From contig NZ_CP094289.1 of NCBI RefSeq assembly GCF_022759505.1, forward strand, positions 496,001-560,000: 64,000 bases of DNA, written 5' to 3'. Origin of the DNA: Georgenia sp. TF02-10. GTDB taxonomy: Bacteria; Actinomycetota; Actinomycetes; Actinomycetales; Actinomycetaceae. The notes beneath the pieces are model-generated. The model was not told the DNA's origin. It did not search any database and saw nothing but the letters and a program-made list of their open reading frames with translations. The translations under genes were made by a program, and so were the position numbers. Positions 11,874-64,000 of this stretch are shown here, piece by piece (position 1 is the stretch's first letter; each line of letters opens with the position of its first letter).

Positions 11874-12023
11874 CGGGCGATTCTCTCACCGGTCCCGGCC
11901 GGCGGGACGACGGCGATCGGTCCCGGCCGCCGTCGCCAGGGAGGGTGGCGGCGGTGACGGCGACGAGGCCCGGCGCGCGACGGCGGCGCTGCCCGACACG
12001 CCCGACGGCCGCGCCGCCCGGCG

Positions 12024-31041: not shown

Positions 31042-31126
31042 GGAGGGCTGACAGAGCGGCCGAATGTGGCGGTCTTGAAAACCGCTGTGGGGCGACCCAC
31101 CAAGGGTTCGAATCCCTTGCCCTCCG
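31042..31126 (+). tRNA. tRNA-Ser (anticodon UGA)
   Basis: An 85-nt cloverleaf with acceptor stem GGAGGGC/GCCCTCC and discriminator G. The anticodon loop CTTGAAA (31074-31080) carries TGA at 31076-31078. A long variable arm and the T-loop GGTTCGAATCC are present, and no CCA is encoded. A possible -10 TAGACT lies at 30990-30995. Its 3' half is the left attachment repeat of the element that follows. Confidence 0.96.
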
Positions 31127-31127
31127 C
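31074..31127 (+). repeat. left attachment repeat (attL), inside tRNA-Ser
   Basis: 54 bp from the anticodon loop to one base past the tRNA 3' end. It is repeated at 32535-32588 with one mismatch (C at 31083, T at 32544). Integration into a tRNA 3' half is the usual mode of tyrosine integrases and leaves the tRNA intact. Confidence 0.85.
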
Positions 31128-31254
31128 GTCGTCGCAGGTAATGCGGTCGACGAGGGGTCCAGCGACCTCCGCCGTGAAGAGCTGGGTGTAGTCACCGACA
31201 GCGCCGAAGTCGTCCCGGTCCATCCGTACTATGTCGATCCTCCACGGCGCGGTG

Positions 31255-31620
31255 ATGGCTAACCTTCAGGCATACCTCGCTGAGCACCCGCTGGGCGGAC
31301 CCAAGGGTGGCTGCAGCCGGGCGGGGTGCGGCGGTGCGCCTCGAACGAGGATCGGGACGCGCCGCTGGAGCACGGCAAGCACTACCTGAGGTACGTCAAC
31401 TTTGCGCTTCACCGTCGAGGTCGCGGGAACGCGCTTCCACGGCCTGCGGCACACCTACGCGTCGCTTGGGTTCATGGCTGGCGTCGACCCGAGCATGGTC
31501 AGCCGGGTTGATGGGATACGGCTCCCGGAGCATCACGACCAAGTCTTCGTCAGCGACCTGTCGCCGGCCGACGAGGCTCTACACCCGCGCCGCGTCGGCG
31601 TTGTGGCCGAGCACGTACCG
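31255..31620 (+). pseudogene. tyrosine recombinase/integrase remnant, C-terminal part
   Basis: Phage-type integrase fragments are spread over shifted frames. The clearest is TRFHGLRHTYASLGFMAGVDPSMVSR at about 31432-31508, which holds the R-H-x-Y box II region of tyrosine recombinases (usual form FHDLRHTHASLLLAAG). Farther on, LSPADEALHPR resembles the FPSADEAL end that follows the catalytic tyrosine in many actinophage integrases; the H/GHSSI block and the tyrosine region are damaged. Upstream, NEDRDAPLEHGKHYLRYVN in another frame resembles the segment preceding box II. The N-terminal half is gone. It sits immediately downstream of the tRNA used as attachment site, as expected for the element's own integrase. 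Confidence 0.8.
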
Positions 31621-31635
31621 GTGAGGATCCCCGCG

Positions 31636-32208
31636 CTACTCCGCGAGGATGCGCTTGCACAAGGCGAACATGACAAGGCCATGGACGAGTGAAACACTCA
31701 CCTCGTAACGCGGGATCCCGCCCGGCTCTCGCAGTTCGACGGTGAAGGTCTCACCCGCCTGAGTCACGGACGCCAGCATCAGATCGTCTGCCGAGGTCTC
31801 GTACCGAGTGGCGACCCGGAGGCGAGCGCTCTCGATCGCTTCGTCCTCTGTGAATGTTCGTCTCGCCGACGCGTCCCGTACGTGCGTTGCGAGCCGTCGC
31901 GCGTAGCGCAGGAGCGAGTCGGCAGCGATGGCTATGAAGATGTCTCCGGACAGTTGCACAGCGACTTCCGCTACGTCACCCGACGCGCCCCACTCGGTGG
32001 TTCTCCGGCTGTACACGATCGAATATCGGGGTTCCCCGCCGTTCGGCCGAAGGATGTCGTCTAGAGTTGTCCAGAGCCACCCTTGGGGCACGTCGAGACC
32101 GTTTGCGTCAATGGCGACGAAGTCACCGGTCCACTCGAAGTGTTCGTCAAGCGGTTCAAACGTAAAGTAGGTGACTTCCGGTGGTCCCTCCGCCCACTCG
32201 TCGCTCAC
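31636..32208 (-). CDS. hypothetical protein, element cargo
   Basis: 190-residue acidic, soluble protein that I do not recognise. It has a mixed alpha/beta pattern. Segments include EWTGDFVAIDANGLDVPQGW, YSIVYSRRTTEWG and a C-terminal ELREPGGIPRYEVSVSLVHGLVMFALCKRILAE whose last part is hydrophobic. No signal peptide or catalytic motif is visible. The GTG start at 32208 overlaps the stop of a 35-codon reading frame upstream (GTGA), suggesting coupled translation. It lies inside the tRNA-Ser element and has lower G+C than its neighbours. Defence, toxin or immunity roles are possible for such cargo but unproven. Confidence 0.7.
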   Translation of the reverse strand: MSDEWAEGPPEVTYFTFEPLDEHFEWTGDFVAIDANGLDVPQGWLWTTLDDILRPNGGEPRYSIVYSRRTTEWGASGDVAEVAVQLSGDIFIAIAADSLLRYARRLATHVRDASARRTFTEDEAIESARLRVATRYETSADDLMLASVTQAGETFTVELREPGGIPRYEVSVSLVHGLVMFALCKRILAE

Positions 32209-32312
32209 GGCTGGGGAGCCTTGAACTGCCGCAACGACCCGCCGTCGATCGAACTGCGTGGTGGGCGGTTGGTGATACCGTGGGTAGCGAGAGTGCTGGG
32301 GTCGTCGCTCAT
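32205..32312 (-). CDS. small reading frame coupled to the element cargo gene
   Basis: 35 codons, ATG at 32312 to TGA at 32205-32207, starting MSDDPSTLATHGITNR. Its stop overlaps the GTG of the 190-residue gene by 4 bases. The peptide is polar and basic toward its end. It may be a leader peptide, a small partner protein or a remnant; length alone does not decide. Confidence 0.4.
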   Translation of the reverse strand: MSDDPSTLATHGITNRPPRSSIDGGSLRQFKAPQP

Positions 32313-32740
32313 GGGCCTAAGGTAGCAGGACGTAGCCACACCCCCGACTCGGAACGGGCGGCGGACTTCACGATCCCTCCGAGAAACCCTGCAGGTACGC
32401 CGCGTGAATAATTTTCAGCTTGCGCGGCTGTCGACCATCCCTTCCGTTGCTAGTCCAGACAGTGGCTAAGCCCCGCGCCGCATGGCGCCACGACTGTTCG
32501 CTGCGGACGACTGTGGCGCAAGCGAAGGACTGTACTTGAAAACTGCTGTGGGGCGACCCACCAAGGGTTCGAATCCCTTGCCCTCCGCCGGATGTTGGCC
32601 GGCCACTCGCTCGCGTCGGAAGCGCCGTCTCGGGCGGGGTGAGGGGTCGACGTCGCCTGGTGGCCGGAACGCCGCACCGGAGAGGTGCCGCGCTGGCGGA
32701 CACGTGCGAGGCACCATGTACTCCTGACAGGGAGGTGACG
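32313..32740. other. right end of the tRNA-Ser element
   Basis: 428 bp without a supported gene. It includes an A+T-rich patch near 32400-32420 (gaataattttcagc), unusual for this genome, and the right attachment repeat at 32535-32588. Sequence after 32589 leads into the MerR-DUF433 gene. Confidence 0.6.
32535..32588 (+). repeat. right attachment repeat (attR), tRNA-Ser 3'-half copy
   Basis: 53 of 54 bases match the anticodon loop to 3' end of tRNA-Ser(UGA) at 31074-31127. The 5' half of a tRNA is absent upstream, so this is not a functional tRNA gene but the second junction of an integrated element. Confidence 0.85.
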
Positions 32741-33364
32741 ATGCTTGCCAACCTCGATCTCGTGGCCATCCCCCGCGAGAAGGCTGCAGCCCTTGCCGGC
32801 ATCAGTCAGCGCCGGCTTCGGTACTGGCATCGCAAGGGGCTCGTGGCACCCACGATCGAGTCCCACCGAACCTCGCGCCCGGTGTACCTCTACGCCTACC
32901 AGGACCTCCTGGCGGTGCTCGTCCTCGTCGAACTCAAGGCGCGCGGCGTGCGTCTGCAGCACGTCCGGCGAGTGGTGCCTTACGTTCGCGCGCTCGGGTA
33001 CTCCCAGCCGCTGACCGAGGTCTGCTACGCCATCCACGGCGGCGAGATCCACCTGCAGCACCCCGACGGCGGCTGGGAGGGTGATCGCCGCCCCGGCCAA
33101 GGGGTCCTCCCCGAGGTGCTCGAGCTCGAGCCGCTGCGCGCGCGCATCCAGCGAGCCGTGATCCGGCCAGAGCAGCAGCACGGCTCTACGGAGCGGCGGT
33201 CGGGGACGCTGGGAGGGAAGGAGGTGTTCGCCGGCACGCGCGTCCCCGTCAGCACCGTGCAGCGCTACCTCGACATGGGTGCTTCCGTGGAGCAGGTCCT
33301 GACGTCCTTCCCAGCCCTGGATCGTGCCGACGTCGACGAGGTGATCAGTCGGCGAGCATCATGA
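32741..33364 (+). CDS. MerR-like HTH plus DUF433 antitoxin-type protein
   Basis: 207 residues. A MerR-like winged HTH (about 8-75, AALAGISQRRLRYWHRKGLVAPTIES) is followed by a DUF433 domain at the C-terminus (GKEVFAGTRVPVSTVQRYLDMGASVEQVLTSFPALDRADVDEVISRR). This fusion typically precedes a DUF5615/PIN-like toxin gene in actinobacteria, and the protein then serves as DNA-binding antitoxin. The ATG at 32741 has GGGAGG 5 nt upstream. The following toxin frame overlaps by ATGA but breaks after 27 codons. Confidence 0.85.
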   Translation: MLANLDLVAIPREKAAALAGISQRRLRYWHRKGLVAPTIESHRTSRPVYLYAYQDLLAVLVLVELKARGVRLQHVRRVVPYVRALGYSQPLTEVCYAIHGGEIHLQHPDGGWEGDRRPGQGVLPEVLELEPLRARIQRAVIRPEQQHGSTERRSGTLGGKEVFAGTRVPVSTVQRYLDMGASVEQVLTSFPALDRADVDEVISRRAS

Positions 33365-46510: not shown

Positions 46511-46708
46511 TCTCCCGGCCGCCGGGGCGATGCTCCGGCCCACGCCCGCGCCCGTGCCGACGACGACGGCCGGCGCTCCCGTGCTGCGTGTGACGATGGC
46601 CCGATGGGTGTCCGGCCGGTGCGCATCCGCCGCTCCACCCCTGACGACGGCGGCGGGTGCCGGCTTTGCGGCGGCCAGCGGCGGCGACGGCGAGCGTGCA
46701 ACGAGCTC

Positions 46709-47626
46709 GTGCCGCACGGACGGGCCCTGGCCGCCGCGGCCGCGCTCTTCCTGGTGGCGGCCGGCTGCGCGGGCGCACCCGGTGCCCGGGCGCCCGGCAC
46801 GGACGAGCCTGACCCGGGCGCATCCCAGCCAGCGGTCACCGGAGGGTCCGACACGGCGGGACTGGCAGGGTACGAGCTGCCGCCGACGAGCGGCACGTTC
46901 GACTACCAGCTCGGCGGCGCCTACGACGAGCTCGCCAGCAGCAACCGGCCGGTCGCCGTCGACGTCGTGGTCCGGGACTCGACGGCCGCCCCACTAGCCG
47001 GGGCCTACAGCGTCTGCTACGTCAACGGCTTCCAGACGCAGCCGGGCGAGGCGGAGCGGTGGCTGGGCGAGCACGAGGACCTGCTCCTGCACGACGCGTC
47101 GGGCACTCCCGTCAGCGACCCGGCGTGGCCCGACGAGTACGTGCTCGACCCATCTACCGAGGACCAGCGCGCCGGCATCCTCCGGATCCTCGGCCCGGTC
47201 GTCACGGGATGCGCCGACGCCGGGTTCGACGCGGTGGAGATCGACAACCTCGACACCTGGACCCGCTTCGACCAGATCGACGAGGAAGGGGCGCTGGCGC
47301 TCGCCCGCGCGTACGTGGACCTCGCCCACGGCGCGGGGCTCGCCGTCGCGCAGAAGAACGCCGCCGAGGTCGCGCGGCTCGCCGCGGACGACCTCGGGTT
47401 CGACTTCGCCGTCACCGAGGAGTGCGCGGTGTGGTCCGAGTGCGCCGCGTACACCGCCGTCTACGGGAACCACGTGCTCCAGGTCGAGTACCCGGACGCG
47501 CTCGCCGGGGCGGGGATGACCTTCCAGGGCGTGTGCGCGCTCGACGACCGGGCGCCGCTGACGATCCTCCGCGACCGCCGGCTCGTCGCTGCGGGGGAGC
47601 GCGGGTACGTCTACGAGGCCTGCTGA
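46709..47626 (+). CDS. GH114 endo-alpha-1,4-polygalactosaminidase-like lipoprotein
   Basis: 305 residues. From the GTG at 46709 the protein begins MPHGRALAAAAALFLVAAGC, a lipoprotein signal with Cys20. A disordered linker precedes a TIM-barrel GH114 domain (about 65-305), with YQLGGAYDELASSNRPVAVDVVVRDS, VCYVNGFQTQPGEAERW, GFDAVEIDNLDTW (putative acidic active site) and VAQKNAAEVARLAADDLGFDFAVTEECAVWSEC. Relatives hydrolyse polygalactosamine. An in-frame ATG at 46604 would add 35 Arg/Cys-rich residues and bury the signal, so it is rejected. Confidence 0.82.
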   Translation: MPHGRALAAAAALFLVAAGCAGAPGARAPGTDEPDPGASQPAVTGGSDTAGLAGYELPPTSGTFDYQLGGAYDELASSNRPVAVDVVVRDSTAAPLAGAYSVCYVNGFQTQPGEAERWLGEHEDLLLHDASGTPVSDPAWPDEYVLDPSTEDQRAGILRILGPVVTGCADAGFDAVEIDNLDTWTRFDQIDEEGALALARAYVDLAHGAGLAVAQKNAAEVARLAADDLGFDFAVTEECAVWSECAAYTAVYGNHVLQVEYPDALAGAGMTFQGVCALDDRAPLTILRDRRLVAAGERGYVYEAC

Positions 47627-52816: not shown

Positions 52817-52822
52817 TAGAGT
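52817..52822 (+). promoter_or_regulatory. -10 element of the Wadjet operon
   Basis: TAGAGT ends 7 nt before the jetA GTG at 52830, predicting a leaderless jetABCD message. Confidence 0.4.
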
Positions 52823-52829
52823 CGTGCGG

Positions 52830-54281
52830 GTGAGCGTGCTGCACAGCGCGCTGGCCGCGCAGCGGCTGATCGCGGAGAGCCCGGCCTGGTCGCTGCTGCG
52901 CGCCCAGCACGCCGGACCCATGGTTGCCATCCTCGGCGCGCACCTGGCGGGCGAGGACAAGCGCCTGCCCGCCCCGGTGCTCTTCGAGCGGGTGGAGGAG
53001 GACCTGGCGTTGCTGCGCGACCACGGCCTGGACCTCCCGCAGACCGCCCAGGCCTACTGCGCCGCCTGGCGCGAGGCCGGCTTCCTCATCCGCCGCGCCG
53101 CCGAGGGCGCCCGGGACGAGACCTTCGAGCTGTCCGAGGGCGCGCTGACCGCCATCCGGTTCGTCAACCAGCTCGCCGCACCCCGCCAGAGCGTCACCGA
53201 GTCCCGGCTGTCCCTCATCCTCGAGCGGGTCCGGGCCCTCGCCGTCGAGACCGACCCCGACGCCACCTCCCGGCTCGCCGCGCTCCGGGAGCAGCGGGAC
53301 CGCCTGGACGCCGAGATCGAGCGGGTGGCCGCCGGGGACTTCGAGGTGCTGCCCGCCGACCGGGCCATGGAGCGGGTGCTGGACATCCTCGGGCTGGCCG
53401 CGGAGATCCCGGCGGACTTCGCCCGGGTGCGGGCCGAGATGGAGCAGATCAACCGGTCGTTGCGGGAGCGGCTGATCGAGCAGGCCGAGACCCGCGGCGC
53501 GGTGCTGGAGGACATCTTCCGCGGCGTGGACCACCTCGCCGAGTCCGACGCCGGCCGCAGCTTCAACGGGTTCTACTCCCTGGTCCTGGACGCGGAGCGG
53601 GCGACGGCGTTCGAGGACGACGTCGCCAACGTCCTGGAGCGGGCCTTCGCCGACGGGCTCACAGCCGAGCAGGCCCGGGTGCTGCGCCGGATGCTGCCCG
53701 CCCTGCAGGACAGCAGCGGCGAGATCCACGACGTCATGACGGCGTTCAGCCGGTCCCTGCGCCGGTTCGTGCAGAGCCAGCAGTTCCAGGAGGACCGCCG
53801 GATCAACACCCTGCTGCGCCAGGCGCTGGGCGAGGCCATGCGGCTGTCCGAGGAGGTCCCGCCCTTCCGCCGCACCTCCCTGACCCTGGACCTCAGCGCG
53901 GTGCCGCTGGACTCCGTCGCCGTGCTGCGCCCGCACAACCCGGCCGACTCCGAGACCGTCGAGGACGTCACCGCCCGGGAAGCCCCGCCGGTCGACGTCG
54001 CCCGGCTCCGCGAGCTCGCCCGCGCCTCGGAGATCGACCTCAAGGAGCTCACCCGCAACGTCAACGACGTGCTCCGGCGCCGCGGTCCGGTCACCATCGG
54101 GGAGGTCCTCGCCGAGCACCCCGCCACCCAGGGGGTGGCCAGCGTCGTCGGGCTGCTGGTGCTGGCCGAGCAGCACGGCGCGGCGCTGACCGGCGCCGAG
54201 ACCGTGCGGTGGGTTTCCGGCACCGGGGTGCCGCGCGTCGGGTCCGTCCCGCTGCACCTGTTCGAGGAGGCGGTTCCGTGA
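52830..54281 (+). CDS. jetA: Wadjet type I subunit JetA (DUF3375)
   Basis: 483-residue DUF3375 protein, the MukF/kleisin-associated winged-helix-type subunit of the Wadjet SMC complex. It begins SVLHSALAAQRLIAESPAWSLLRAQHAG, as in the family. Helical coiled regions lie at about 100-300 (SRLAALREQRDRLDAEIERVAAGDFEVL, ARVRAEMEQINRSLRERLIEQ), and SDAGRSFNGFYSLVLDAE is a conserved stretch. Wadjet complexes recognise and cleave small circular DNA such as plasmids. It is the first gene of jetABCD; the jetB GTG overlaps its stop. No transmembrane or catalytic motif is seen, as expected. Confidence 0.94.
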   Translation: MSVLHSALAAQRLIAESPAWSLLRAQHAGPMVAILGAHLAGEDKRLPAPVLFERVEEDLALLRDHGLDLPQTAQAYCAAWREAGFLIRRAAEGARDETFELSEGALTAIRFVNQLAAPRQSVTESRLSLILERVRALAVETDPDATSRLAALREQRDRLDAEIERVAAGDFEVLPADRAMERVLDILGLAAEIPADFARVRAEMEQINRSLRERLIEQAETRGAVLEDIFRGVDHLAESDAGRSFNGFYSLVLDAERATAFEDDVANVLERAFADGLTAEQARVLRRMLPALQDSSGEIHDVMTAFSRSLRRFVQSQQFQEDRRINTLLRQALGEAMRLSEEVPPFRRTSLTLDLSAVPLDSVAVLRPHNPADSETVEDVTAREAPPVDVARLRELARASEIDLKELTRNVNDVLRRRGPVTIGEVLAEHPATQGVASVVGLLVLAEQHGAALTGAETVRWVSGTGVPRVGSVPLHLFEEAVP

Positions 54282-55207
54282 CCGAGACCGACGGCGCCGA
54301 CGTCACCGACGCGGGCCTCACCGGTCCCGGCCTCACCGACGCCGGCGAGGGCGTCCTCGCCGATCAGGCACCGGCCGACGGCGGCCTGTGGCCCGGTGAC
54401 ACCGGGACGCTGCGGGAGCCCTCGCGCCGCGCCCTCGTCCAGCTGCTCCGCGGGCCCTACGTCTCCGCCGACCGGCAGGGCCACCTGTGGCGCGCCGTCC
54501 TGAACGACGAGGCGGCCATCCGCTCCCGCCTCGCCGACGTCTTCCTCGACCTCGTCGTCGACACCGAGGCGCAGGTGGCGTTCGTCCGCAACGCCGACAC
54601 CGGCGGCCTCGACGCCCCGCGGGTGGTCCGGTCCGCGCCGATGACGTTCATGGACACCGCGCTGGTGCTGCACCTGCGCCAGCTGCTGCTCCAGTCCGCC
54701 GGGAGCGAGCGGGTCATCGTCGGCCAGGACGAGGTCAGCGACCAGCTCCAGGTCTACCGCGGCCGGGACAACGCCGACCCGGCCATGTTCGGCAAGCGGA
54801 TCAACGCCTCCTGGCGCAAGCTCGAGCAGTACGGCATCCTCGCCCGGACCAGCACCGAGGGGCGCTACGAGATCTCCCCGGTCCTGCGGCTGGTCTTCGG
54901 CGCCGAGGAGATCGCCGCCGTCCAGGCCGAGTACGCGCGGCTGGCCGACGGCGGCCGAACCCCGGGCAGCACCGGGTCACCGGCCGGGCCGACCACCGAC
55001 GACGCCGCGGGCGACGACGGCGGGGTCGACCCTGGCACCGACGACGTCGCGAGCGACGGCGTCCGGTCGGCTGTCACGGGCGCGGCGATCGGCGATGTCG
55101 GTGGCACGTCCCATGATGGGCCGAGACCGGCACCGGACGAGGACGGGACGCCGGCACCGGGCGAGGACGGGACGCCGGTTCCCGGCGAGGACGAGGGAGA
55201 GACGTGA
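54278..55207 (+). CDS. jetB: Wadjet type I subunit JetB (DUF4194), with acidic tail
   Basis: 309 residues. The DUF4194 core spans about 45-222 (RRALVQLLRGPYVSADRQGHLWRAVLNDEAAIRSRLADVFLDLVVD ... MTFMDTALVLHLRQLLLQ ... SWRKLEQYGILAR), corresponding to the MukE-like winged-helix subunit. A 45-residue acidic N-terminus and a disordered acidic C-terminal tail (about 227-309) with PAPDEDGT/PAPGEDGT/PVPGEDEG repeats flank it. The tail is longer than I would expect for the family. GTG starts and overlaps join it to jetA and jetC. Confidence 0.92.
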   Translation: MTETDGADVTDAGLTGPGLTDAGEGVLADQAPADGGLWPGDTGTLREPSRRALVQLLRGPYVSADRQGHLWRAVLNDEAAIRSRLADVFLDLVVDTEAQVAFVRNADTGGLDAPRVVRSAPMTFMDTALVLHLRQLLLQSAGSERVIVGQDEVSDQLQVYRGRDNADPAMFGKRINASWRKLEQYGILARTSTEGRYEISPVLRLVFGAEEIAAVQAEYARLADGGRTPGSTGSPAGPTTDDAAGDDGGVDPGTDDVASDGVRSAVTGAAIGDVGGTSHDGPRPAPDEDGTPAPGEDGTPVPGEDEGET

Positions 55208-58200
55208 GCACCGACGTCGTGGAGCACCCGGGCCAGTGGCGGCTGGACCGCATCGAGCTGGTCAACTGGGGCACGTTCGACGGCCACCACCGCCTCGACC
55301 TCGCCCGCAAGGGCTTCCTGCTCACCGGCGCCTCCGGGTCGGGCAAGTCCTCCCTGGTCGACGCCGTCGCCGCCGTCCTCGTCCCGCGCGGCAAGCTCCG
55401 GTTCAACGCCGCCGCGGCCGACGGCGCGAGCCGGCGGGCGGACCGGACCACCGCCAGCTACGTCCGCGGGGCATGGCGGCGCCAGGCGGACGAGGAGACC
55501 GGCGAGATCGTCAGCGAGTACCTCCGCCCGGGCGCCACCTGGAGCGGGATCCTGCTGCGCTACGCCGACGGCCGTGGACGGACGGTGAGCCTGGTCAAGC
55601 TCTACCACCTGCGCCGCGGGGCGAACACGCCGGCCGAGGCCACCGAGCTGAACGTGCTGCTCCAGGAGGACGTCGACCTCCTGGACTTCCAGGCCTTCGC
55701 CCGCAACGGGCTGGACGTGCGCCGGATCAAGGCGCACTGGCCGCAGGCCACGGTCACCGACAAGCACTCCACCTTCGCCGCCCGGTTCTGCCGGATCCTG
55801 GGGATCGCCGGGGAGAACGCCCTGGTCCTGCTGCACAAGACCCAGTCCGCCAAGAGCCTGGAGAACCTCGACGACCTCTTCCGCAGCTTCATGCTCGACG
55901 AGCCGCGCACCCGGAAGATGGCCGAGACCGCCGTCGAGCAGTTCGCCGAGCTCTCCCAGGCGCACACCCTCGTCGTCGAGGCGCGCCAGCAGGTCGACCA
56001 CCTCGCCGCGCTCGAGCCGCAGGCCCGCGCCTACGACGAGCACATCGAAGCCGCCGCGGCCGCCGAGCGCCTCTCCGCCGCCCTGGAGCCGTTCAAGAAC
56101 GCCTGGAAGCTCGACCTGGCCGAGCAGGAGCGCAGCACCGCCGAGTCCGAGCTGCGCACCGCCGAGCACGGCCTCGCTGCCGCCGAGGCCACCACCGCCG
56201 ACGCCGACACCGCCCTGGACCAGGCCCGCCGGCTGGTCGCCGAGCGCGGCGGGGACGCCCTGGCGGTGCAGAAGAAGCAGGTCGAGCTCGACGCCCAGCA
56301 CCTGGCCGCCGTGCGCAAGGGCCGGGCCGAGCTCGCCGAGGACCTGACCGCCGTCGGCATCGCCCTGCCGGAGACCTTCGCCGAGTACGAGGAGCTGCGG
56401 GCCACCGCCCGCACCGAGCTCGCCGGGCTGGCCCGCGCCCAGGACCAGGCCCGCGAGCAGGTCGGCGCCCTGTACGAGACCCGCGCCGAGGTCCAGACCC
56501 GGCTCGCCGCCGTCGCGGAGGAGCTGACCGCCCTCAAGGGCGTGCGGTCCAACCTCGACGCCCGCCTGCTGCAGGCCCGCCGCCTGGTCTGCCAGGAGAC
56601 CGGCCTGACCCCCGCGACCCTGCCCTTCGCCGGCGAGCTGGTGCAGGTCCGGCCCGAGCACGCGGACTGGACCGGCGCCATCGAGCGCGTCCTGCGGCCG
56701 CTGGCCACCGTCATGCTCGTCCCGGCCGCGCACCGGGAGCGGGTCGCGGCCGCCGTCGACGGCGTCCACCTCGGGACCCGGCTCGTCTTCGAGGCCGTGC
56801 CCACCGAGGTCGAGCCGCCCCGCCCGGTCGCCGCCGAGACGTCGCTGGTCCACCGCGTCGAGGTCGCCCCCGGCCCGATGGCCGCCTGGCTGCACGCCAC
56901 GCTCTCCCGCTCCTACGACTACGCCTGCGTCGCCGGCCCGGCCGAGCTGCACCGCCACGACCGCGCCGTGACCCGGGCCGGGCAGGTCAAGCGCGGCCGC
57001 GGCCGGTACGAGAAGGACGACCGGTTCCGGGTCGACGACCGGGCCCGGTGGGTGCTCGGCTTCGACAACGCCGACAAGGTGGAGCACTTCCTGGCCCGAC
57101 GGAGGGCGGTGGAGGCCGAGCTGGCCGCCGTCGACAGGCGCCTGGCCGACGCCGAGCGCGCCCGGGTGGGCGCCCAGCGCCGGGCCGACGTGCTGCGCAC
57201 GCTGGAGCGGCGCGGGTGGGCCGACCTGGACGTCGGCGCCGCCGAGGACGCCCTGCTCCGCAACCAGGCCCGGCTCGACGAGCTGCGCCTGGGCAACACC
57301 GACCTGCGCGCCGCCGAGGCCGCGGAGCACCGGGCCACCGCCGACCTCGCCGCCGCCAAGGAGGCGGAGCAGGCACGGCGCGGCGCCGTCGCCGAGGCCC
57401 GGGCCCGGCTCAACCAGATCGACCGGGTCCTCGCTGAGCTGCGGCCCGCCGTCGCCGACGGCGTCCCGCTCCCGCACCAGGAGGAGCTCGAGCGGCGCTT
57501 CCACGCCAGCAAGCACGCGCGCAGCATCACCCACCGCACGATCGACGACATCGCCGTCCGGGTGGCCAAGGGGCTGGCCGCCGAGCAGAAGGCCGCGACC
57601 GAGGCCGCCCAGGACGCCGAGAAGCGGATCCTGGAGATGGCCGGCGCCTTCCTGCGCCGGTGGCCCGCGCTGGCCGGCAACCTCACCGCGCACGTGGCGG
57701 ACCGCGGCGGCTTCCTGCAGATCCTCGACCGGCTCCGGGCGGACCGGCTGCCAGAGTTCGAGCAGCGGTTCTTCGACCTGCTGGAGAGCCAGTCCCGGCG
57801 CAACGTCGGCCAGCTCGCCAGCGAGATCCGCCGCGCGCCGGGGGAGATCCGGGACCGCATCGCCCCGGTCAACACCTCGCTGCGCCGCTCCCGCTTCGAC
57901 GTCGGCCGGTACCTGCAGATCCGGGTGACGGACAACCGCTCCGCGGCCGCCAAGGAGTTCCTCGCCGACCTGCAGACCATCGCCTCGGACTCCTGGCAGG
58001 ACCACGACCGCGCCTCGGCCGAGGCGACCTACACCGTGCTCGCCCGGATCATGGGACGGCTGACCTCCTCGGAGAGCGGGGACCGCGCCTGGCAGGACCT
58101 GTGCCTGGACACCCGCCGGCACGTCCGCTTCACCGCCTACGAGGTGGACGAGGCCGGGGCGGTCGTCAGCGTGCACGACTCCGGCTCCGGCCTCTCCGGC

Positions 58201-58692
58201 GGGCAGAAGCAGAAGCTGGTGGTCTTCTGCCTCGCCGCGGCGCTGCGCTACCAGCTCGCGACCGACGGCGCCGAGGTGCCCAGCTACGGCACGGTCATCC
58301 TGGACGAGGCCTTCGACAAGGCCGATGCCACCTTCACCCGGATGGCGATGGACATCTTCGCCGAGTTCGGCTTCCACATGGTCCTCGCCACCCCGCTCAA
58401 GCTCCTCCAGACCCTGGAGGAGTACGTCGGCGGGATCGGGCTGGCGGTGTGCCGCGACCGGCAGCAGTCCACCGTCGGCGTGGTCTCCGTCGACGACGCG
58501 AGCCTGGTCACTGCGCTGGCCGAGGACGGGGTCGGCGCCGGCGCCGACGGCGCGAACGGCCGGAGCGGCGCGGACAGCCGCATCGGCGCTGCTGTCGGCG
58601 TCCAGGCCGACGGCGGCCGGCCCGGCGACGAGGGCCGCTCGCCCGACGGCGGGGGCGTCGTCGTCGACACCCTCCCGCTCGACCTGTCGTGA
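55204..58692 (+). CDS. jetC: Wadjet type I SMC-like ATPase JetC
   Basis: 1162-residue SMC/MukB-like ATPase. Walker A GASGSGKSS is at 42-50 (Lys48), the ABC signature LSGGQKQK at 997-1004, and Walker B VILDEAFDKAD from 1031 with Asp1034/Glu1035. Two long Ala/Glu/Arg-rich coiled coils (about 260-480 and 600-850) flank a hinge-like region near 490-600. JetC dimers extrude DNA loops to sense plasmid size before JetD cuts. The last about 55 residues are a Gly/Asp-rich low-complexity tail ending VVVDTLPLDLS. GTG overlaps the jetB stop; jetD follows after 13 nt. Confidence 0.95.
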   Translation: MSTDVVEHPGQWRLDRIELVNWGTFDGHHRLDLARKGFLLTGASGSGKSSLVDAVAAVLVPRGKLRFNAAAADGASRRADRTTASYVRGAWRRQADEETGEIVSEYLRPGATWSGILLRYADGRGRTVSLVKLYHLRRGANTPAEATELNVLLQEDVDLLDFQAFARNGLDVRRIKAHWPQATVTDKHSTFAARFCRILGIAGENALVLLHKTQSAKSLENLDDLFRSFMLDEPRTRKMAETAVEQFAELSQAHTLVVEARQQVDHLAALEPQARAYDEHIEAAAAAERLSAALEPFKNAWKLDLAEQERSTAESELRTAEHGLAAAEATTADADTALDQARRLVAERGGDALAVQKKQVELDAQHLAAVRKGRAELAEDLTAVGIALPETFAEYEELRATARTELAGLARAQDQAREQVGALYETRAEVQTRLAAVAEELTALKGVRSNLDARLLQARRLVCQETGLTPATLPFAGELVQVRPEHADWTGAIERVLRPLATVMLVPAAHRERVAAAVDGVHLGTRLVFEAVPTEVEPPRPVAAETSLVHRVEVAPGPMAAWLHATLSRSYDYACVAGPAELHRHDRAVTRAGQVKRGRGRYEKDDRFRVDDRARWVLGFDNADKVEHFLARRRAVEAELAAVDRRLADAERARVGAQRRADVLRTLERRGWADLDVGAAEDALLRNQARLDELRLGNTDLRAAEAAEHRATADLAAAKEAEQARRGAVAEARARLNQIDRVLAELRPAVADGVPLPHQEELERRFHASKHARSITHRTIDDIAVRVAKGLAAEQKAATEAAQDAEKRILEMAGAFLRRWPALAGNLTAHVADRGGFLQILDRLRADRLPEFEQRFFDLLESQSRRNVGQLASEIRRAPGEIRDRIAPVNTSLRRSRFDVGRYLQIRVTDNRSAAAKEFLADLQTIASDSWQDHDRASAEATYTVLARIMGRLTSSESGDRAWQDLCLDTRRHVRFTAYEVDEAGAVVSVHDSGSGLSGGQKQKLVVFCLAAALRYQLATDGAEVPSYGTVILDEAFDKADATFTRMAMDIFAEFGFHMVLATPLKLLQTLEEYVGGIGLAVCRDRQQSTVGVVSVDDASLVTALAEDGVGAGADGANGRSGADSRIGAAVGVQADGGRPGDEGRSPDGGGVVVDTLPLDLS

Positions 58693-58705
58693 GGGGAACG
58701 CGGCC

Positions 58706-59929
58706 GTGAGGCGCGCGATGGTCACCGTGGCCGCCGCCCGGGAGGCGGCCCGCCGCAGGTACGACCGGCACGGCGCGGCCTGGGCCGTCGCCGCCGCCCT
58801 CGGTGAGCTCGACGGCGCGCCCGTGCTCGACCTCCCGCTGCACCCGCCCACCGAGGCCGACGCGCTCGCGGACGAGCGGTCGGCCGTCGCCTGGGTCCGG
58901 TCCTGGCGCGACGCCGGCGCCCCGGGCGTGCAGTGGGGACGGCGTCGCTGGGCGAGCGTCGGCGCGCAGGACGTCCCGGAACGCCTCCGGGTCACCGACC
59001 CGGCCGACGTCGCCCGGCTCGCCGGCCGGTCCCCGCACTGGCGGGTGCTCCGGGAGCGGACGGCGGCGCTCGTCGGCGAGTGGGCCGGGCCGGTGGGTGC
59101 GCTGGCGGGCGACGCCGCGCCGAGCGGCGCCGCGGCGGACGATGCCGCGGCGGGCGGTGTTGCGGCGAGCGCCGTGCCCACGGAGGTGCGCCGCCAGGCC
59201 CGCGCCCTCACCGACCTCGACGACGCCGACTTCTGGCGACTGCAGGAGGTGCTCCGCTGGCTCGTCGCCCACCCCGGCTCCGGGCTCTACGTCCGCCAGC
59301 TGCCGGTGCGCGGCGTCGACACCAAGTGGGTCGGGCACCACCGCGGCCTGGTCACCGGGCTGGTCGGGGCCATCACCGGCAGCACCGACCTGGGCCTGGC
59401 CCACCCGCCGGACCTGGTGCGCGTGCGCTTCCTCGACCCGGCCCTCGCCCCCGGCGGGCTGACCGACGTCGCCGCCCCGGTGGCGCAGCTCGACGCGCTG
59501 GGCATCGCGCCGCGCACGGTGCTGGTAGCGGAGAACCTGGAGTCGGTGGTGGCCCTGCCCCCGCTGCCCGGCGCGGTCGCCGTGCACGGCTCGGGCTACG
59601 CCGTCGAGCGGCTCGGCGAGATCTCCTGGGTGCGGGACGGGCGCGTCCTCTACTGGGGCGACCTGGACAGCCACGGCTTCGCCATCCTCGACCGGCTCCG
59701 CGGAGCCTGCCCGGCGGCGGTCTCGGTCCTGATGGACCGCGCCACCCTGGAGGCCCACCGGGACCTGTGGGTGCCCGAGCCCACGCCCAGCCGGGCCGAC
59801 GTCGCCCGGCTCACCCCGGCCGAGGCGGAGGTCCTCGCCGTCCTGCGCGACGAGGGGGACGTGCGGCTGGAGCAGGAGCGGCTGGACTGGGCCACCTGCC
59901 TGGCCACGCTCCGCGCCGCGGCGGGTTGA
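58706..59929 (+). CDS. jetD: Wadjet type I nuclease JetD (DUF3322-DUF2220)
   Basis: 407 residues. The N-terminal DUF3322 arm (about 1-190) is followed by a DUF2220 Toprim-like nuclease domain. The metal residues are visible: Glu276 in VLVAENLESVVALP and Asp319/Asp321 in YWGDLDSHGFAILDRL. This is the topoisomerase VI-like subunit that cleaves plasmid DNA once JetABC has completed loop extrusion. An Ala/Gly/Asp-rich insert (about 130-158) interrupts the N-terminal domain. The GTG at 58706 has GAGGGGAA 6 nt upstream, the only Shine-Dalgarno-led gene of the operon. Confidence 0.94.
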   Translation: MRRAMVTVAAAREAARRRYDRHGAAWAVAAALGELDGAPVLDLPLHPPTEADALADERSAVAWVRSWRDAGAPGVQWGRRRWASVGAQDVPERLRVTDPADVARLAGRSPHWRVLRERTAALVGEWAGPVGALAGDAAPSGAAADDAAAGGVAASAVPTEVRRQARALTDLDDADFWRLQEVLRWLVAHPGSGLYVRQLPVRGVDTKWVGHHRGLVTGLVGAITGSTDLGLAHPPDLVRVRFLDPALAPGGLTDVAAPVAQLDALGIAPRTVLVAENLESVVALPPLPGAVAVHGSGYAVERLGEISWVRDGRVLYWGDLDSHGFAILDRLRGACPAAVSVLMDRATLEAHRDLWVPEPTPSRADVARLTPAEAEVLAVLRDEGDVRLEQERLDWATCLATLRAAAG

Positions 59930-60163
59930 GCGGCGGCGGGCCGAGCGGCGGCGGGCCGAGCGGGCGACGCCGGGACGCCGTCGTGAGGGACGGAAGCGCC
60001 GGGACGCCGTGAACCTCCCGAGGCTCCGCTGACGCCCAGGGCCATGGGGACCATCCTCAGGTACTAATGACAGAAGTTGATCGATCGCGTTGACTCTAGA
60101 TCACGCTCATGCGTACGTTGCCGGAGTGCCGCCGTGCCGGCGGTCCGGTCCCGAGGGAGCCCC
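59930..60163 (+). other. spacer between jetD and the GH112 gene
   Basis: 234 bp. The first part contains two copies of GAGCGGCGGCGGGCC (around 59930-59960) and GCCGGGACGCCG duplicated near 59969 and 59998. The second part, from 60060, is A+T-richer and carries the GH112 promoter. No gene is supported. Confidence 0.5.
60090..60119 (+). promoter_or_regulatory. GH112 promoter with DeoR operator candidate
   Basis: -35 TTGACT (60090-60095), an 18-bp spacer, then TACGTT (60114-60119). Overlapping the -35 and spacer is the reverse complement of TGATCTAGAGT (60093-60103), nearly identical to TGATCTAAAGT at 63258-63268 in front of the SIS gene. Confidence 0.55.
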
Positions 60164-62323
60164 ATGTCACGCGGTCGAGTCACCCTGCCCACCGAGGTCG
60201 GCGCCGAGCAGGCGTCCCTCGACCTGATCGCCCGGCTGGGCGCCGACGCGGTGCGCAACAGCGACGGCACCGAGCTGCCGGCCGGCGCCGCCGACATGGT
60301 GGAGAAGGTCTACGCGACCTACTTCGTCGCCCGGGGGGACCAGGAGTGGGCCCAGGCCCACCCCGACCAGCTCCAGCAGATCTACCTGCTCTCCGAGCGG
60401 GTCACCGCCACCGCCGAGGAGCTGACCATCGACCCGATGGCCGGCTACTTCGCCGAGCAGGTGCGCCCCGACGTCGAGCACGACCCGGCCGAGTGGTGGG
60501 AGGTCATCGACCGCACCACCGGCGCCGTCGTCCCGCCGGAGCGCTGGGCCGTCACCGCCGACGGCACCGTCCGGGTCACCGGCGCCACCCCCTGGCACGA
60601 GTACACCGTGACGTTCCTGGCCTGGCAGCTGTGGGACCCGACCCAGATGTACAACTACCTGACCAACCACTGGCAGGGCACCGGCCGGGCCAAGGAGATG
60701 CCCTACGACGCCCGCCACCCCGAGACGTGGGACCACATGGTGACGTCGCTGCGCACCTGGCTGGCCGCGCACCCGGAGGTCGACGTCGTCCGGTTCACCA
60801 CGTTCTTCTACCACTTCACCCTCGTCTTCAACGACCGGGCCGAGGAGAAGCTCGTCGACTGGTTCGGTTACACCGCCTCGGTCTCCACCATCGCGCTGGA
60901 TGCCTTCGCCGCGGAGCACGGGTACCGGCTGCGGCCGGAGGACCTGGTCGACGCCGGCTACCACAGCTCCCCGTTCCGGGTGCCGAGCAAGCCCTTCCGG
61001 GACTGGCTGGCGTTCCAGCAGCGGTTCGTCGCCGAGAAGGTGCGCGCCCTGGTCGCGGAGGTCCACGCCGCCGGCAAGGAGGCGATGATGTTCCTCGGCG
61101 ACAACTGGATCGGCACCGAGCCGTACGGCGAGCACTTCGCCGGCCTCGGCCTTGACGCCGTCGTCGGCTCGGTCGGCAGCGCCGCCACCACCCGGATGAT
61201 CAGCGACATCCCCGGCGTGCGGTACACCGAGGGCCGCCTCCTGCCCTACTTCTTCCCCGACGTCTTCCGGCCCGGCGGGGACCCGCTGGGGGAGGCCCGG
61301 CAGTGCTGGGTGGACGCCCGCCGCGCCATGCTGCGCAAGCCGCTGGACCGGATCGGCTACGGCGGGTACGTCTCGCTCGCCGCCCGGTTCCCCGACTTCC
61401 TCGACTACGCCGCCCAGGTCGCCGAGGAGTTCCGCACCCTGCACGACCGCGCCGCCGGCACCGCCCCGTGGACCGCGCCGGTGCGGGTGGCGGTGCTCAA
61501 CCACTGGGGCCGGTTGCGCACCTGGCAGACGTTCATGGTCGCGCACGCCATGCACTACAAGCAGACCTACACCTACCTCGGCGCGATCGAGGCCCTGGCC
61601 GGGCTGCCGGTGGACGTCACCTTCCTCTCCTTCGCGGAGGTGATGACGGCCGGGGTGCCCGACGGCGTGGACGTGGTCCTCAACGCGGGCGCCGCCGGCA
61701 CCGCGTTCTCCGGCGGGGAGGTCTGGGCCGACCCCCGCCTCACGACGGCGCTGCGCGCCTGGGTGCACGCCGGCGGCGGGCTCGTCGGCATCGGCGAGCC
61801 GTCCGCGCACCTGCGCGGCGGGCGCACCTTCCAGCTCGCGGACGTCCTCGGGGTGGACCAGGAGGTCGGCCTGTCGCTGAGCACCGACAAGTACGCCGAG
61901 CCGCGCCACGACGACCACTTCGTTACCGCCGACCTGCCCGGCGCCCCGGCCACCGGGGAGGGCGCCCGCAACGTCTACCCGACCGGACCGGCCACCCAGG
62001 TGCTGCGCTACGACGCGGAGGTGCAGGTAGCCACGCACGGCTACGGCGCCGGCCGCAGCGTCTACCTCGCCGGCCTGCCCTACACCCCCGACAACGCCCG
62101 GCTGCTGCACCGGGCCGTGCTCTGGGCCGCCGGGCACGAGCGGACGCCGGCGTGGTGGTCGGACAACCCGGCGGTGGACGTGGCCGCCTTCCCCGACGCC
62201 GGCTGCTGGGTGGCGGTGAACTCCACCCTCGAGCCGCAGTCGGCCCGGGTCACGCTGCCCGACGGCGAGGTGGCGACCGTCGCGCTCGGCGCGGCCGGCT
62301 CGGCCTGGGCGGACCTGGGCTGA
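60164..62323 (+). CDS. gnpA: 1,3-beta-galactosyl-N-acetylhexosamine phosphorylase (GH112)
   Basis: 719-residue cytosolic phosphorylase cleaving lacto-N-biose or galacto-N-biose with phosphate to galactose 1-phosphate and GlcNAc or GalNAc. It shows the GH112 landmarks: MSRGRVTLPTEVG start, TFFYHFTLVFND, the general acid region MMFLGDNWIGTEPYGEHF with Asp313 (the same number as the acid residue I recall for the Bifidobacterium longum enzyme), and GGYVSLAARFPDFLDYA. Length is standard. ATG at 60164 follows GAGGGAG. The neighbouring DeoR regulator and SIS gene suggest a mucin- or glycan-sugar utilisation locus. Confidence 0.93.
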   Translation: MSRGRVTLPTEVGAEQASLDLIARLGADAVRNSDGTELPAGAADMVEKVYATYFVARGDQEWAQAHPDQLQQIYLLSERVTATAEELTIDPMAGYFAEQVRPDVEHDPAEWWEVIDRTTGAVVPPERWAVTADGTVRVTGATPWHEYTVTFLAWQLWDPTQMYNYLTNHWQGTGRAKEMPYDARHPETWDHMVTSLRTWLAAHPEVDVVRFTTFFYHFTLVFNDRAEEKLVDWFGYTASVSTIALDAFAAEHGYRLRPEDLVDAGYHSSPFRVPSKPFRDWLAFQQRFVAEKVRALVAEVHAAGKEAMMFLGDNWIGTEPYGEHFAGLGLDAVVGSVGSAATTRMISDIPGVRYTEGRLLPYFFPDVFRPGGDPLGEARQCWVDARRAMLRKPLDRIGYGGYVSLAARFPDFLDYAAQVAEEFRTLHDRAAGTAPWTAPVRVAVLNHWGRLRTWQTFMVAHAMHYKQTYTYLGAIEALAGLPVDVTFLSFAEVMTAGVPDGVDVVLNAGAAGTAFSGGEVWADPRLTTALRAWVHAGGGLVGIGEPSAHLRGGRTFQLADVLGVDQEVGLSLSTDKYAEPRHDDHFVTADLPGAPATGEGARNVYPTGPATQVLRYDAEVQVATHGYGAGRSVYLAGLPYTPDNARLLHRAVLWAAGHERTPAWWSDNPAVDVAAFPDAGCWVAVNSTLEPQSARVTLPDGEVATVALGAAGSAWADLG

Positions 62324-62332
62324 CGCGCGGGC

Positions 62333-63115
62333 TCAGGCCCGCACCACCTCGATGCCCGCGGCGTCGAACCGGTCGGCGAGGTCGGCGCCGACCGAGTCGT
62401 CGGTCAGCAGCACGTCGATGCCCTCCGGGCCGCAGATGCGGGCGAAGGCGCTGCGGCCCAGCTTGCTGGCGTCGGCGACGACGACCACCCGCCGGGCCCG
62501 CGCGGCGAGCTTGGCGTTGATGCTGGCCTCGCCCTCGTTGTGGGCGGCGGCGCCGGCGTCGGGGTCCACGGCGTCGACGCCGAGGAAGAGGGTGTCGATG
62601 GAGATCTCGCCGAGGATCAGCTCGGCGAGCGGCCCGATCAGCTCGAAGCTCTGCGTGCGGGCGACGCCGCCGGTCACCACCACCCGGACGTGCGGGCGGA
62701 CCGTGAGCTCGTTGGCGATGTTCACCGCGTTGGTCACGACGACGACCGGCTGGTCCCGCGCCGCGGCCAGCTCCGGGCTGGTCGCCACCTCCCGGGCGAC
62801 CTCGGTCGTCGTCGTCCCGCCGTTGAAGGCGATGACCTCCCCGGGGTGGACCATGGCGGCCGCCGCCCTGGCGATGCGGCCCTTCTCGGCGGCCCGGCGG
62901 GCGGTCTTGTACCGCAGCGGCAGGTCGGAGGACCCCGGGTGCGGCGCCGCGCCGCCGCGGGTCCGGGTGATCAGCTGCTGCTCGGCCAGGGCGTCGAGGT
63001 CGCGCCGCGCGGTCGCCGCCGAGACCCCCAGCTCGCTGATGATCTCGTCGATGTGCACGCCGTCGCGCGCCATCACGAGCTCGAGCAGGGCGTTCAGCCT
63101 GTCGTGGCGGTTCAT
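62333..63115 (-). CDS. DeoR/GlpR-family sugar-phosphate-responsive repressor
   Basis: 260 residues: a DeoR HTH at 5-58 (RLNALLELVMARDGVHIDEIISELGVSAATARRDLDALAEQ) and a DeoRC sugar-phosphate-binding domain with IAFNGGTTTTEVAREV, VVTNAVNIANEL, VVTGGVARTQSFELIGPLAE and DTLFLGVDAVDPDAG. It likely represses the flanking GH112 and SIS genes until an amino-sugar or sugar phosphate binds. ATG at 63115 with GAGAGGAA; a -10-like TAGCCT is at 63138-63143. It is convergent with gnpA (9-bp gap) and divergent from the SIS gene. Confidence 0.93.
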   Translation of the reverse strand: MNRHDRLNALLELVMARDGVHIDEIISELGVSAATARRDLDALAEQQLITRTRGGAAPHPGSSDLPLRYKTARRAAEKGRIARAAAAMVHPGEVIAFNGGTTTTEVAREVATSPELAAARDQPVVVVTNAVNIANELTVRPHVRVVVTGGVARTQSFELIGPLAELILGEISIDTLFLGVDAVDPDAGAAAHNEGEASINAKLAARARRVVVVADASKLGRSAFARICGPEGIDVLLTDDSVGADLADRFDAAGIEVVRA

Positions 63116-63246
63116 CGCTTCCTCTCCGTCTGGTCGCAGGCTACCGGCCGGCCACCGAGGAGCCGGATACCCAGATCGAGGAGCGGCGGCGCGCGGACCG
63201 GCGCCGGGGGCACCCGGCCCGGCGGGGCCGGTGCGCCCGGCGACGG

Positions 63247-63278
63247 TTGACGGGTCATGATCTAAAGTGCATTGTTAG
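63247..63278 (+). promoter_or_regulatory. SIS gene promoter with DeoR operator candidate
   Basis: -35 TTGACG (63247-63252), a 17-bp spacer containing TGATCTAAAGT (63258-63268), and a -10 near CATTGT/TGTTAG (63270-63278). The operator-like word shares 10 of 11 bases with the one at 60093-60103 and occupies the spacer, a repressing position. Confidence 0.55.
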
Positions 63279-63314
63279 AGCGAGTAACACGCGGAAACGA
63301 TCAGAGGAGATGCC

Positions 63315-64000
63315 GTGGGGCAGGAGACCAGCCGGGAGATCGCGTCGCAGCCGGAGACCTGGCGCCGAGCCGTCGCCCTGGCCCCGACGGTCGAGGGGCT
63401 GCCGCACGCCGGCGAGCGCGTCGCCGTCGTCGGCTGCGGCACCTCCTGGTTCATGGCACAGAGCTACGCCGTCCTGCGGGAGCAGAGCGGGCAGGGCCTC
63501 ACCGACGCCTGGACCGCCACCGAGGTCCCCGCCGGGCGTGACTACGACCGCATCGTCGCGATCTCCCGCTCCGGGACCACGACGGAGATCACCCAGCTCC
63601 TCGCCGCGACAGCCGCCCCGTCGGTGCTCATCACCGCCGTCGCCGGCGGGCCGGCCGCCCAGCACGCCGACCACGAGATCGTCCTGCCCTTCGCCGACGA
63701 GCGTTCCGTGGTGCAGACCCGGTTCGCCACCTCCGCCCTGGTCCTGCTGCGCGCCAGCCTCGGGCAGGACCTCGCCCCCGCGGTGGCCGACGCCGAGCGG
63801 GCCCTGACCGCCGAGCTGCCCCCGGCGTGGGTCGCGGCGGACCAGATCACCTTCCTCGGCACCGGCTGGACGGTCGGGCTGGCGCACGAGGCGGCCCTGA
63901 AGCTCCGCGAGTCCTCCCAGTCCTGGACGGAGTCCTACCCGGCCATGGAGTACCGGCACGGGCCGATCGCCATCGCCCAGCCCGGCCGCCTGACCTGGGT
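63315..64000 (+). CDS. SIS-domain sugar-phosphate isomerase/deaminase (AgaS-like), partial
   Basis: 228 residues visible, continuing past the right edge. A sugar isomerase (SIS) domain begins after 15 residues: PHAGERVAVVGCGTSWFMAQSYAVLRE, then YDRIVAISRSGTTTEITQLL (phosphosugar-binding SRSGTT) and VQTRFATSALVLLR. A second SIS domain starts near 175 (QITFLGTGWTVGLAHEAALKLRESSQSWTESYPAMEYRHGP). The pattern fits AgaS or GlmS-C-like proteins acting on amino-sugar 6-phosphates. GTG at 63315, with GAGGAG 5 nt upstream. It should handle the GalNAc or GlcNAc released by the GH112 enzyme; the exact reaction is inferred. Confidence 0.9.
   Translation, partial: MGQETSREIASQPETWRRAVALAPTVEGLPHAGERVAVVGCGTSWFMAQSYAVLREQSGQGLTDAWTATEVPAGRDYDRIVAISRSGTTTEITQLLAATAAPSVLITAVAGGPAAQHADHEIVLPFADERSVVQTRFATSALVLLRASLGQDLAPAVADAERALTAELPPAWVAADQITFLGTGWTVGLAHEAALKLRESSQSWTESYPAMEYRHGPIAIAQPGRLTW

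What the first reader, a model, noticed from the sequence alone, without database searches (positions are those of the whole stretch)
52830..59929. Complete type I Wadjet anti-plasmid system
jetA (DUF3375), jetB (DUF4194), jetC (SMC-like ATPase with intact Walker A, signature and Walker B) and jetD (DUF3322-DUF2220 with Glu276, Asp319, Asp321) are in canonical order, the first three joined by GTGA overlaps. Every known key residue I can check is present, so it should actively restrict small circular plasmids. Wadjet itself is described; this copy is the main defence system of the window.
Basis: partly seen in the sequence, partly recalled or inferred. Interest (0 to 1): 0.7.

Follow-up and report, generated by a model that had tools for sequence, protein, structure and literature searches.

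The report
Intact type I Wadjet plasmid-defence operon
The window holds a complete four-gene Wadjet operon, a well-described bacterial machine thought to reel in and cut small circular plasmids; this copy looks intact and is ordinary for its group of bacteria.

Summary
The finding is right. Window 52830-59929 (+) holds jetA, jetB, jetC and jetD, all open. All Jet models that PADLOC lists for them are of the kind named JetA1-JetD1, Pfam agrees, and the nearest solved relatives are type I Wadjet proteins. jetA/jetB and jetB/jetC overlap by GTGA; jetC/jetD are 13 bases apart. JetC's ATPase motifs are intact. JetD Glu276, Asp319 and Asp321 align with known active-site residues and are the same in 48 of 48 JetD rows. 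A JetD model (mean pLDDT 93.4) is closest to C. glutamicum MksG (Z 29.8) and P. aeruginosa JetD (Z 23.2). Wadjet is reported in 42% of Actinobacteria (PMC10482375 passages), so this is a new member of a known kind. Plasmid restriction itself cannot be shown from sequence. Additions: the operon sits in a 26 kb block between molybdate-transport and molybdenum-cofactor genes that lie closer together in 7 of 8 relatives examined; JetB carries a conserved LWxxDxG peptide; the tyrosine proposed as catalytic in MksG is present here but missing in 12 of 48 rows, including the nearest relative.

The parts
52830..54281 (+). jetA (MksF/kleisin subunit, DUF3375, 483 aa)
   Evidence: PADLOC JetA1 1.2e-190, Pfam DUF3375 2.2e-146; solved JetA 8q72_E 2.9e-24
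54278..55207 (+). jetB (MksE/KITE subunit, DUF4194, 309 aa)
   Evidence: PADLOC JetB1 1.7e-83, Pfam DUF4194 5.4e-45; solved JetB 8dk1_E 6e-05
54386..54406 (+). JetB residues 37-43 LWPGDTG: conserved LWxxDxG peptide in a low-confidence (probably disordered) N-terminus
   Evidence: L37, W38, D41, G43 invariant in 18 of 18 rows; model block means 42-43 for residues 1-30 and 55 for 31-40
55204..58692 (+). jetC (MksB/SMC-like ATPase, 1162 aa)
   Evidence: PADLOC JetC1 1311.5 bits; solved JetC 8dk2_C 1.3e-67; Walker A, signature, Walker B intact
58706..59929 (+). jetD (MksG/Toprim nuclease, DUF3322 + JetD_C, 407 aa)
   Evidence: PADLOC JetD1 1.1e-120, Pfam JetD_C 3.6e-47 and DUF3322 2.7e-40; MksG 8b7f 1.4e-47; model pLDDT 93.4, Z 29.8 to 8b7f
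59531..59533 (+). JetD Glu276, opposite MksG Glu236 and E. coli JetD residue 248
   Evidence: alignment; 48 of 48 rows
59597..59599 (+). JetD Tyr298, opposite MksG Tyr258 (proposed catalytic tyrosine)
   Evidence: alignment; Tyr in 36 of 48 rows
59660..59668 (+). JetD Asp319-Leu-Asp321 (Toprim DxD)
   Evidence: Asp319 opposite MksG Asp279; both Asp in 48 of 48 rows
59870..59878 (+). JetD Glu389-Gln-Glu391, opposite MksG Glu349/Glu351
   Evidence: alignment; both Glu in 48 of 48 rows
52817..52822 (+). TAGAGT, a TANNNT -10-like element 13 bases before the jetA GTG, suggesting a leaderless transcript (inference)
   Evidence: read; TANNNT at -12 or -13 in L013, L014, L023 and L025 but in none of the other 14 of 18 loci listed

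Best explanation
This is an intact, chromosomal type I Wadjet (JetABCD, the same kind as corynebacterial MksBEFG). Shown here: four complete subunits in operon order, with intact ATPase motifs and an intact Toprim metal site. Inferred from described relatives: JetA (kleisin), JetB (KITE) and JetC (SMC ATPase) form two coupled motor units that extrude DNA loops using ATP; on a small closed circle the DNA runs out and is bent into JetD, whose dimer opens from an autoinhibited form and makes a double-strand cut at the metal site Glu276/Asp319/Asp321, helped by Glu389/Glu391 and, in this copy, perhaps Tyr298. Small circular plasmids are lost and the multi-megabase chromosome is spared. The conserved LWxxDxG peptide at the JetB N-terminus may dock JetD or JetA, in the role reported for the IFDR motif of another JetB (inference). 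The operon was probably gained horizontally, into a variable slot beside the molybdate operon.
For: Profiles. Solved type I relatives match by sequence. Active-site residues the same in 48 of 48 rows, 45 of them distinct. JetD fold: MksG Z 29.8, JetD of P. aeruginosa Z 23.2, topoisomerase VI A Z 14.4. Divergence from the nearest relative is highest at third codon positions (jetA 0.207/0.180/0.398, jetC 0.214/0.222/0.367, jetD 0.272/0.236/0.472), as under protein-level constraint. Loss of C. glutamicum MksB raises plasmid copy number, and MksG nuclease activity depends on Glu236 and Asp279 (PMC10123090 passages). Mechanism as reviewed (PMC10586767 passages). Horizontal gain: besides the window genome, 29 of 212 same-family genomes match JetC at E<=1e-50 (whose tally of 30 of 213 counts the window's own); same-family rows lie on several branches of the JetC tree, and Cellulomonadaceae and Micrococcaceae rows fall inside the window's own six-row group; the molybdate locus lacks Wadjet in 8 of 8 relatives examined. 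The three small contigs of the assembly (94.0, 28.7, 10.8 kb) carry chromosomal-looking genes by eye, which fits activity but does not show it.
Against: No activity, expression or plasmid assay. JetB's match to a solved chain is weak (6e-05) and its model is poor outside the core (mean pLDDT 68.4). The docking role of LWxxDxG is untested, and 6 more distant JetB rows lack it. In MksG, Tyr258Ala cuts activity drastically, which is against reading the tyrosine as a mere helper. No plasmid-gene profile search was run on the assembly.
Confidence: 0.93

Rival explanations
1. An intact-looking but silent or inactive Wadjet: genes present, but not expressed or not functional.
For: No expression data. 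Compared with 16 close relatives this copy has the longest JetB (309 against 206-271 aa) and JetC (1162 against 1098-1131), and the longest JetD hinge in alignment A1 (31 residues against 2-13 in 26 others). jetC looks broken in one relative, Demequina sediminis L033.
Against: Wider same-family rows are as long or longer (JetC up to 1230 aa, one JetB 319 aa with a doubtful start, hinge up to 55 residues), so length is no sign of decay. Frames open; motifs and active-site residues kept; codon-position pattern of constraint.
Confidence: 0.08
2. A condensin of the MukBEF/MksBEF kind, used mainly for chromosome organisation.
For: JetABC are homologues of MukFEB (PMC10123090 passage).
Against: A complete nuclease gene is in the operon; the genome has ScpA of the standard SMC-ScpAB complex; the system is patchy in its family.
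Confidence: 0.03
3. A Wadjet of type II or III, or Lamassu, mislabelled as type I.
For: JetC's ATPase parts give weak PADLOC matches to LmuB (2.5e-08), mad3, mad8 and PtuA.
Against: All Jet models listed bear the number 1 (that 1 means type I is recalled); nearest solved relatives are described as type I.
Confidence: 0.01

Closest known systems
MksBEFG of Corynebacterium glutamicum (type I Wadjet; MksG structure 8b7f)
   Same: Gene order F-E-B-G corresponds to A-B-C-D (PMC10123090 passages). JetD is 1.4e-47 to MksG, Z 29.8. Glu236, Tyr258, Asp279, Glu349, Glu351, Arg156 and Lys166 all have the same residue opposite (with an offset of 106 between construct and MksG numbering that I worked out).
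   Different: Longer JetD hinge (43 query residues against 12 between the two aligned stretches). MksB, MksE and MksF sequences were not compared.
JetABCD of Pseudomonas aeruginosa PA14 and Escherichia coli GF4-3
   Same: JetA, JetC and JetD chains of both match, and JetB of one (that 8dk1-8dk3 are PA14 is recalled). Residue 248, mutated in the E. coli chain, is opposite Glu276.
   Different: Both have Leu opposite Tyr298. JetB is only 6e-05 to 8dk1_E, and the E. coli JetB does not appear at E<=0.001.
Wadjet of Georgenia satyanarayanai P7 (L014)
   Same: Nearest full-length system found: JetA 72%, JetB 74%, JetC 67%, JetD 57%; sister in the JetC tree, SH-aLRT 95. Unnamed same-family genome G159 (L050) has a JetD identical over the last 200 residues.
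   Different: Different neighbours: no window ORF between 28 and 64 kb, nor in the next 20 kb, matches its flanks; His stands in place of Tyr298.

Membership tests
Type I Wadjet (JetABCD/MksBEFG) | JetA with DUF3375 | tested here: met
   PADLOC JetA1 1.2e-190; Pfam DUF3375 2.2e-146
Type I Wadjet (JetABCD/MksBEFG) | JetB with DUF4194 | tested here: met
   PADLOC JetB1 1.7e-83; Pfam DUF4194 5.4e-45
Type I Wadjet (JetABCD/MksBEFG) | JetC SMC-like ATPase with Walker A, signature and Walker B | tested here: met
   PADLOC JetC1 1311.5 bits; motifs at 42, 997, 1031
Type I Wadjet (JetABCD/MksBEFG) | JetD with DUF3322 plus JetD_C/DUF2220 and Toprim acidic residues | tested here: met
Type I Wadjet (JetABCD/MksBEFG) | jetA-jetB-jetC-jetD in one operon-like run | tested here: met
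   overlaps of 4 and 4 bases, gap of 13
Type I Wadjet (JetABCD/MksBEFG) | Restricts small circular plasmids | not testable with these tools
   needs transformation or cleavage assays
Wadjet types II and III | Best match to type II or III Jet profiles | tested here: inconclusive
   all Jet models listed at E<=0.001 bear the number 1, but that PADLOC numbers its models by type is recalled, and no curated type II or III reference was compared
MukBEF/MksBEF condensin without nuclease | No nuclease gene in the operon | tested here: not met
   jetD is present and complete
Lamassu | LmuB-type SMC with a Lamassu effector | tested here: not met
   LmuB matches only JetC residues 11-63 at 2.5e-08; no other Lamassu model is listed for the four proteins at E<=0.001

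The most novel reading that the evidence does not exclude
Within type I Wadjet, a large actinobacterial branch uses a short LWxxDxG peptide on the otherwise disordered JetB N-terminus as the docking point that brings JetD (or JetA) to the motor; and the tyrosine proposed as the MksG nucleophile is dispensable in nature, so that cleavage rests on the invariant acidic residues alone.
Probability: 0.35. Interest if true: 0.4.

Novelty: new member of a known kind. Interest (0 to 1): 0.18.

Why it matters
As a find it is one more copy of a system reported in 42% of Actinobacteria (PMC10482375 passages). Anyone wishing to transform this organism should expect small circular plasmids to be restricted. 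The comparison made around it bears on an open point, whether JetD/MksG cuts by a tyrosine or by acidic residues, and offers natural variants (Tyr here, His in the nearest relative) for a direct test.

Tried and rejected
Rejected: Lamassu and nuclease-free condensin; types II and III are unlikely but not formally excluded (see rivals and membership). Plasmid-borne relatives: tblastn of JetC against 72,556 plasmid records at E<=1e-60 found none; weaker matches were not asked for, and the E. coli system is called plasmid-borne in its structure entry, so this says nothing about Wadjet on plasmids in general. A resident plasmid in the assembly: contigs C2-C4 show no terminal overlap and carry chromosomal-looking genes by eye. 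NCBIfam gave nothing of use. Papers naming both Georgenia and Wadjet: none. Papers with both IFDR and JetB: only the review already read in passages.

A first flank comparison used an ORF list that missed jetD and had wrong-strand ORFs over the molybdate genes; it gave four weak outside matches and was redone in six frames. The JetD start chosen by script in L014 was too early and I shortened it by hand for alignment A1.

Rows dropped: the JetC tree (quick method, with warnings of long branches) left out L033 (frame appears broken), L026 (fragment), L010, L011, L032, L001, L002, L050 and L051 (repeats of L014 and L023), and L003 and L009, which I left out without a test. JetD: no JetD of 200 aa or more was found for 9 of 39 loci L003-L041 and 2 of 19 loci L050-L068, mostly short stretches. 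A2 left out L024 (doubtful start) and the more distant JetB rows. The genome-contig loci come from a search by six short peptides of this JetC, so they favour close relatives.
Full report
Observation. The best PADLOC models are JetA1 (1.2e-190), JetB1 (1.7e-83), JetC1 (1311.5 bits) and JetD1 (1.1e-120). All Jet models listed for the four proteins bear the number 1, which I take to mean type I (recalled); JetC also has five weak matches to other systems' ATPases. Pfam gives DUF3375, DUF4194, the SbcC/Rad50-type ATPase ends, and DUF3322 with JetD_C. The assembly has one DUF3375 and one DUF4194 match, both here; the same two searches ring, among 14 control genomes, only in Corynebacterium glutamicum.

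Key residues. JetC has GASGSGKSS (42), LSGGQKQK (997) and VILDEAFD (1031). In the JetD alignments with solved chains, Glu276 stands opposite MksG Glu236 and opposite residue 248 of the E. coli JetD(E248A) chain, which there reads Ala; Asp319 opposite MksG Asp279; Tyr298 opposite Tyr258; Glu389 and Glu391 opposite Glu349 and Glu351; Arg197 and Lys207 opposite Arg156 and Lys166. One offset, 106, between the 8b7f construct and MksG numbering fits all seven. MksG Glu236Ala and Asp279Ala have drastically impaired nuclease activity, and so has Tyr258Ala, with a residual activity (PMC10123090, passages).

Survey of JetD. Over 48 JetD rows, the window's included (45 distinct over their last 200 residues), Glu276, Asp319, Asp321, Glu389 and Glu391 are the same in 48 of 48. 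The Tyr298 column has Tyr 36, Phe 3, Asp 3, His 2, Ser 2, Asn 1, Lys 1. Both His rows carry the same Georgenia-type sequence, the nearest relative of the window's system. P. aeruginosa and E. coli JetD have Leu there; the MksG authors already noted that the tyrosine is not in JetD. So the tyrosine is common but not required by nature, while the acidic set is. I read this as cleavage by the acidic metal site with the tyrosine helping where present; the Tyr258Ala result is against calling it unimportant in MksG.

Structure. The JetD model has mean pLDDT 93.4; residues 131-150 are uncertain (block means 53 and 49). Closest solved chains are MksG 8b7f (Z 29.8, rmsd 8.1 over 362 residues), JetD 7til (Z 23.2, rmsd 13.8 over 355), then topoisomerase VI A 1d3y (Z 14.4) and Spo11 (Z 11.0). 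The high rmsd values would fit two domains moving about a hinge. The hinge is 31 residues here against 2-13 in the 26 other rows of alignment A1, but up to 55 in wider same-family rows, so a long hinge is not special. JetB models well only in its core; block means are 42-55 for residues 1-40 and 39-68 from residue 201 on.

JetB peptide. In 18 aligned JetB sequences, Leu37, Trp38, Asp41 and Gly43 are invariant although the N-terminus around them varies in length and sequence. The pattern [LIVM][WFY]xxDxG is found in the first 80 residues of 18 of 19 same-family JetB rows, the other reading AWPGDTG (two of the 19 repeat sequences already in the 18). Three further rows have LFxGDxG, and six more distant rows lack it. 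A review reports that an IFDR motif at the JetB N-terminus contacts JetD in cross-linking (PMC10586767, passage). I infer, without a test, that LWxxDxG is the counterpart.

Origin. The nearest full-length JetC is that of Georgenia satyanarayanai (67%), then Cellulomonas, an Actinomycetales genome and Arthrobacter at 55-58%; a short fragment, L026, is 69% over residues 832-1108. One search counts 30 of 213 same-family genomes with a match at E<=1e-50, the window's own among them, so 29 of 212 others. In the JetC tree of 50 rows the window pairs with Georgenia inside a six-row group with Cellulomonas and Arthrobacter, while other same-family rows fall on several branches. Of 19 close loci, 17 share no window ORF outside the operon and 2 share only weak, distant matches; the queries were ORFs ending beyond 28 kb and the next 20 kb, and some loci are short.

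Site. To the left of jetA lie a TOBE-domain regulator gene and genes for a solute-binding protein, a permease and a TOBE-bearing ATPase, which I take for a molybdate transporter. I took 8 of the 62 other genomes with a TOBE match, favouring good matches on long contigs. All 8 keep the four-gene block, and none is among the genomes with a JetC match at E<=1e-50. On the far side of the block they have, by eye, nitrate reductase, molybdenum-cofactor or unrelated genes. In this genome cofactor genes (mogA, mobA, moaC, moeA by eye; no profile search) come at about 79-84 kb on the window scale, some 26 kb from the TOBE gene, and 7 of the 8 relatives have matches to them 0.8-12 kb from theirs (L119 had none in the 19 kb fetched). 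The 26 kb hold Wadjet and then lacto-N-biose phosphorylase, a DeoR regulator and, by eye, other sugar genes. A NarI match lies elsewhere, at C1:3572891. So Wadjet lies in a variable slot; integrases and end repeats were not looked for systematically.

Promoter. TANNNT stands 13 bases before the jetA GTG, and 12-13 bases before it in L013, L014, L023 and L025, but in none of the other 14 of 18 loci. A leaderless transcript is plausible in this group only.

Function. The described mechanism is loop extrusion by a JetABC dimer of dimers until a small circle is exhausted, then a cut by JetD (PMC10586767, passages; the 2018 and 2022 primary papers were not read). Sharp bending of DNA in JetD is discussed from the topoisomerase VI work (PMC13040014, passages). 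Nothing in this copy contradicts that. Activity, expression and the size limit in this host are unknown.

Verdict. A correct annotation of a common system, worth keeping, low in surprise: interest 0.18.

Noticed in passing
L014 JetD, column of window Tyr298 (also L050): His replaces the proposed catalytic tyrosine in the nearest relative; Phe, Asp, Ser, Asn or Lys in ten further rows of 48.
   Followed up: partly
L033 (Demequina sediminis), jetC at about 10001-13247: tblastn spans residues 4-1094 but the best open frame covers only 184-827, so jetC looks frameshifted, by mutation or sequencing error.
   Followed up: no
window 52817-52822; upstream of jetA in L013, L014, L023, L025: TANNNT lies 12-13 bases before the jetA start, as expected for a leaderless transcript; absent there in the other 14 of 18 loci.
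   Followed up: partly
window 31042-33361: After a tRNA-Ser gene a short ORF resembles an integrase end by eye, though Pfam and PADLOC find nothing in it; then ORFs of lower third-position GC, one with MerR and DUF433 domains. Perhaps a remnant of a mobile element.
   Followed up: partly
window 58500-58692 (JetC end): A low-complexity tail ends in TLPLDLS; the Georgenia JetC ends in TLPLEL, so the tip may be a conserved peptide.
   Followed up: no
window 60077-64000 and G000 C1 560001-571000 (L128): A sugar block beside Wadjet: lacto-N-biose phosphorylase and a DeoR regulator, and by eye a sugar isomerase, ROK kinase, aldolase and ABC sugar transporter.
   Followed up: partly
window 46604-47626: A protein with a GH114 domain (Pfam 9.1e-45).
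   Followed up: no
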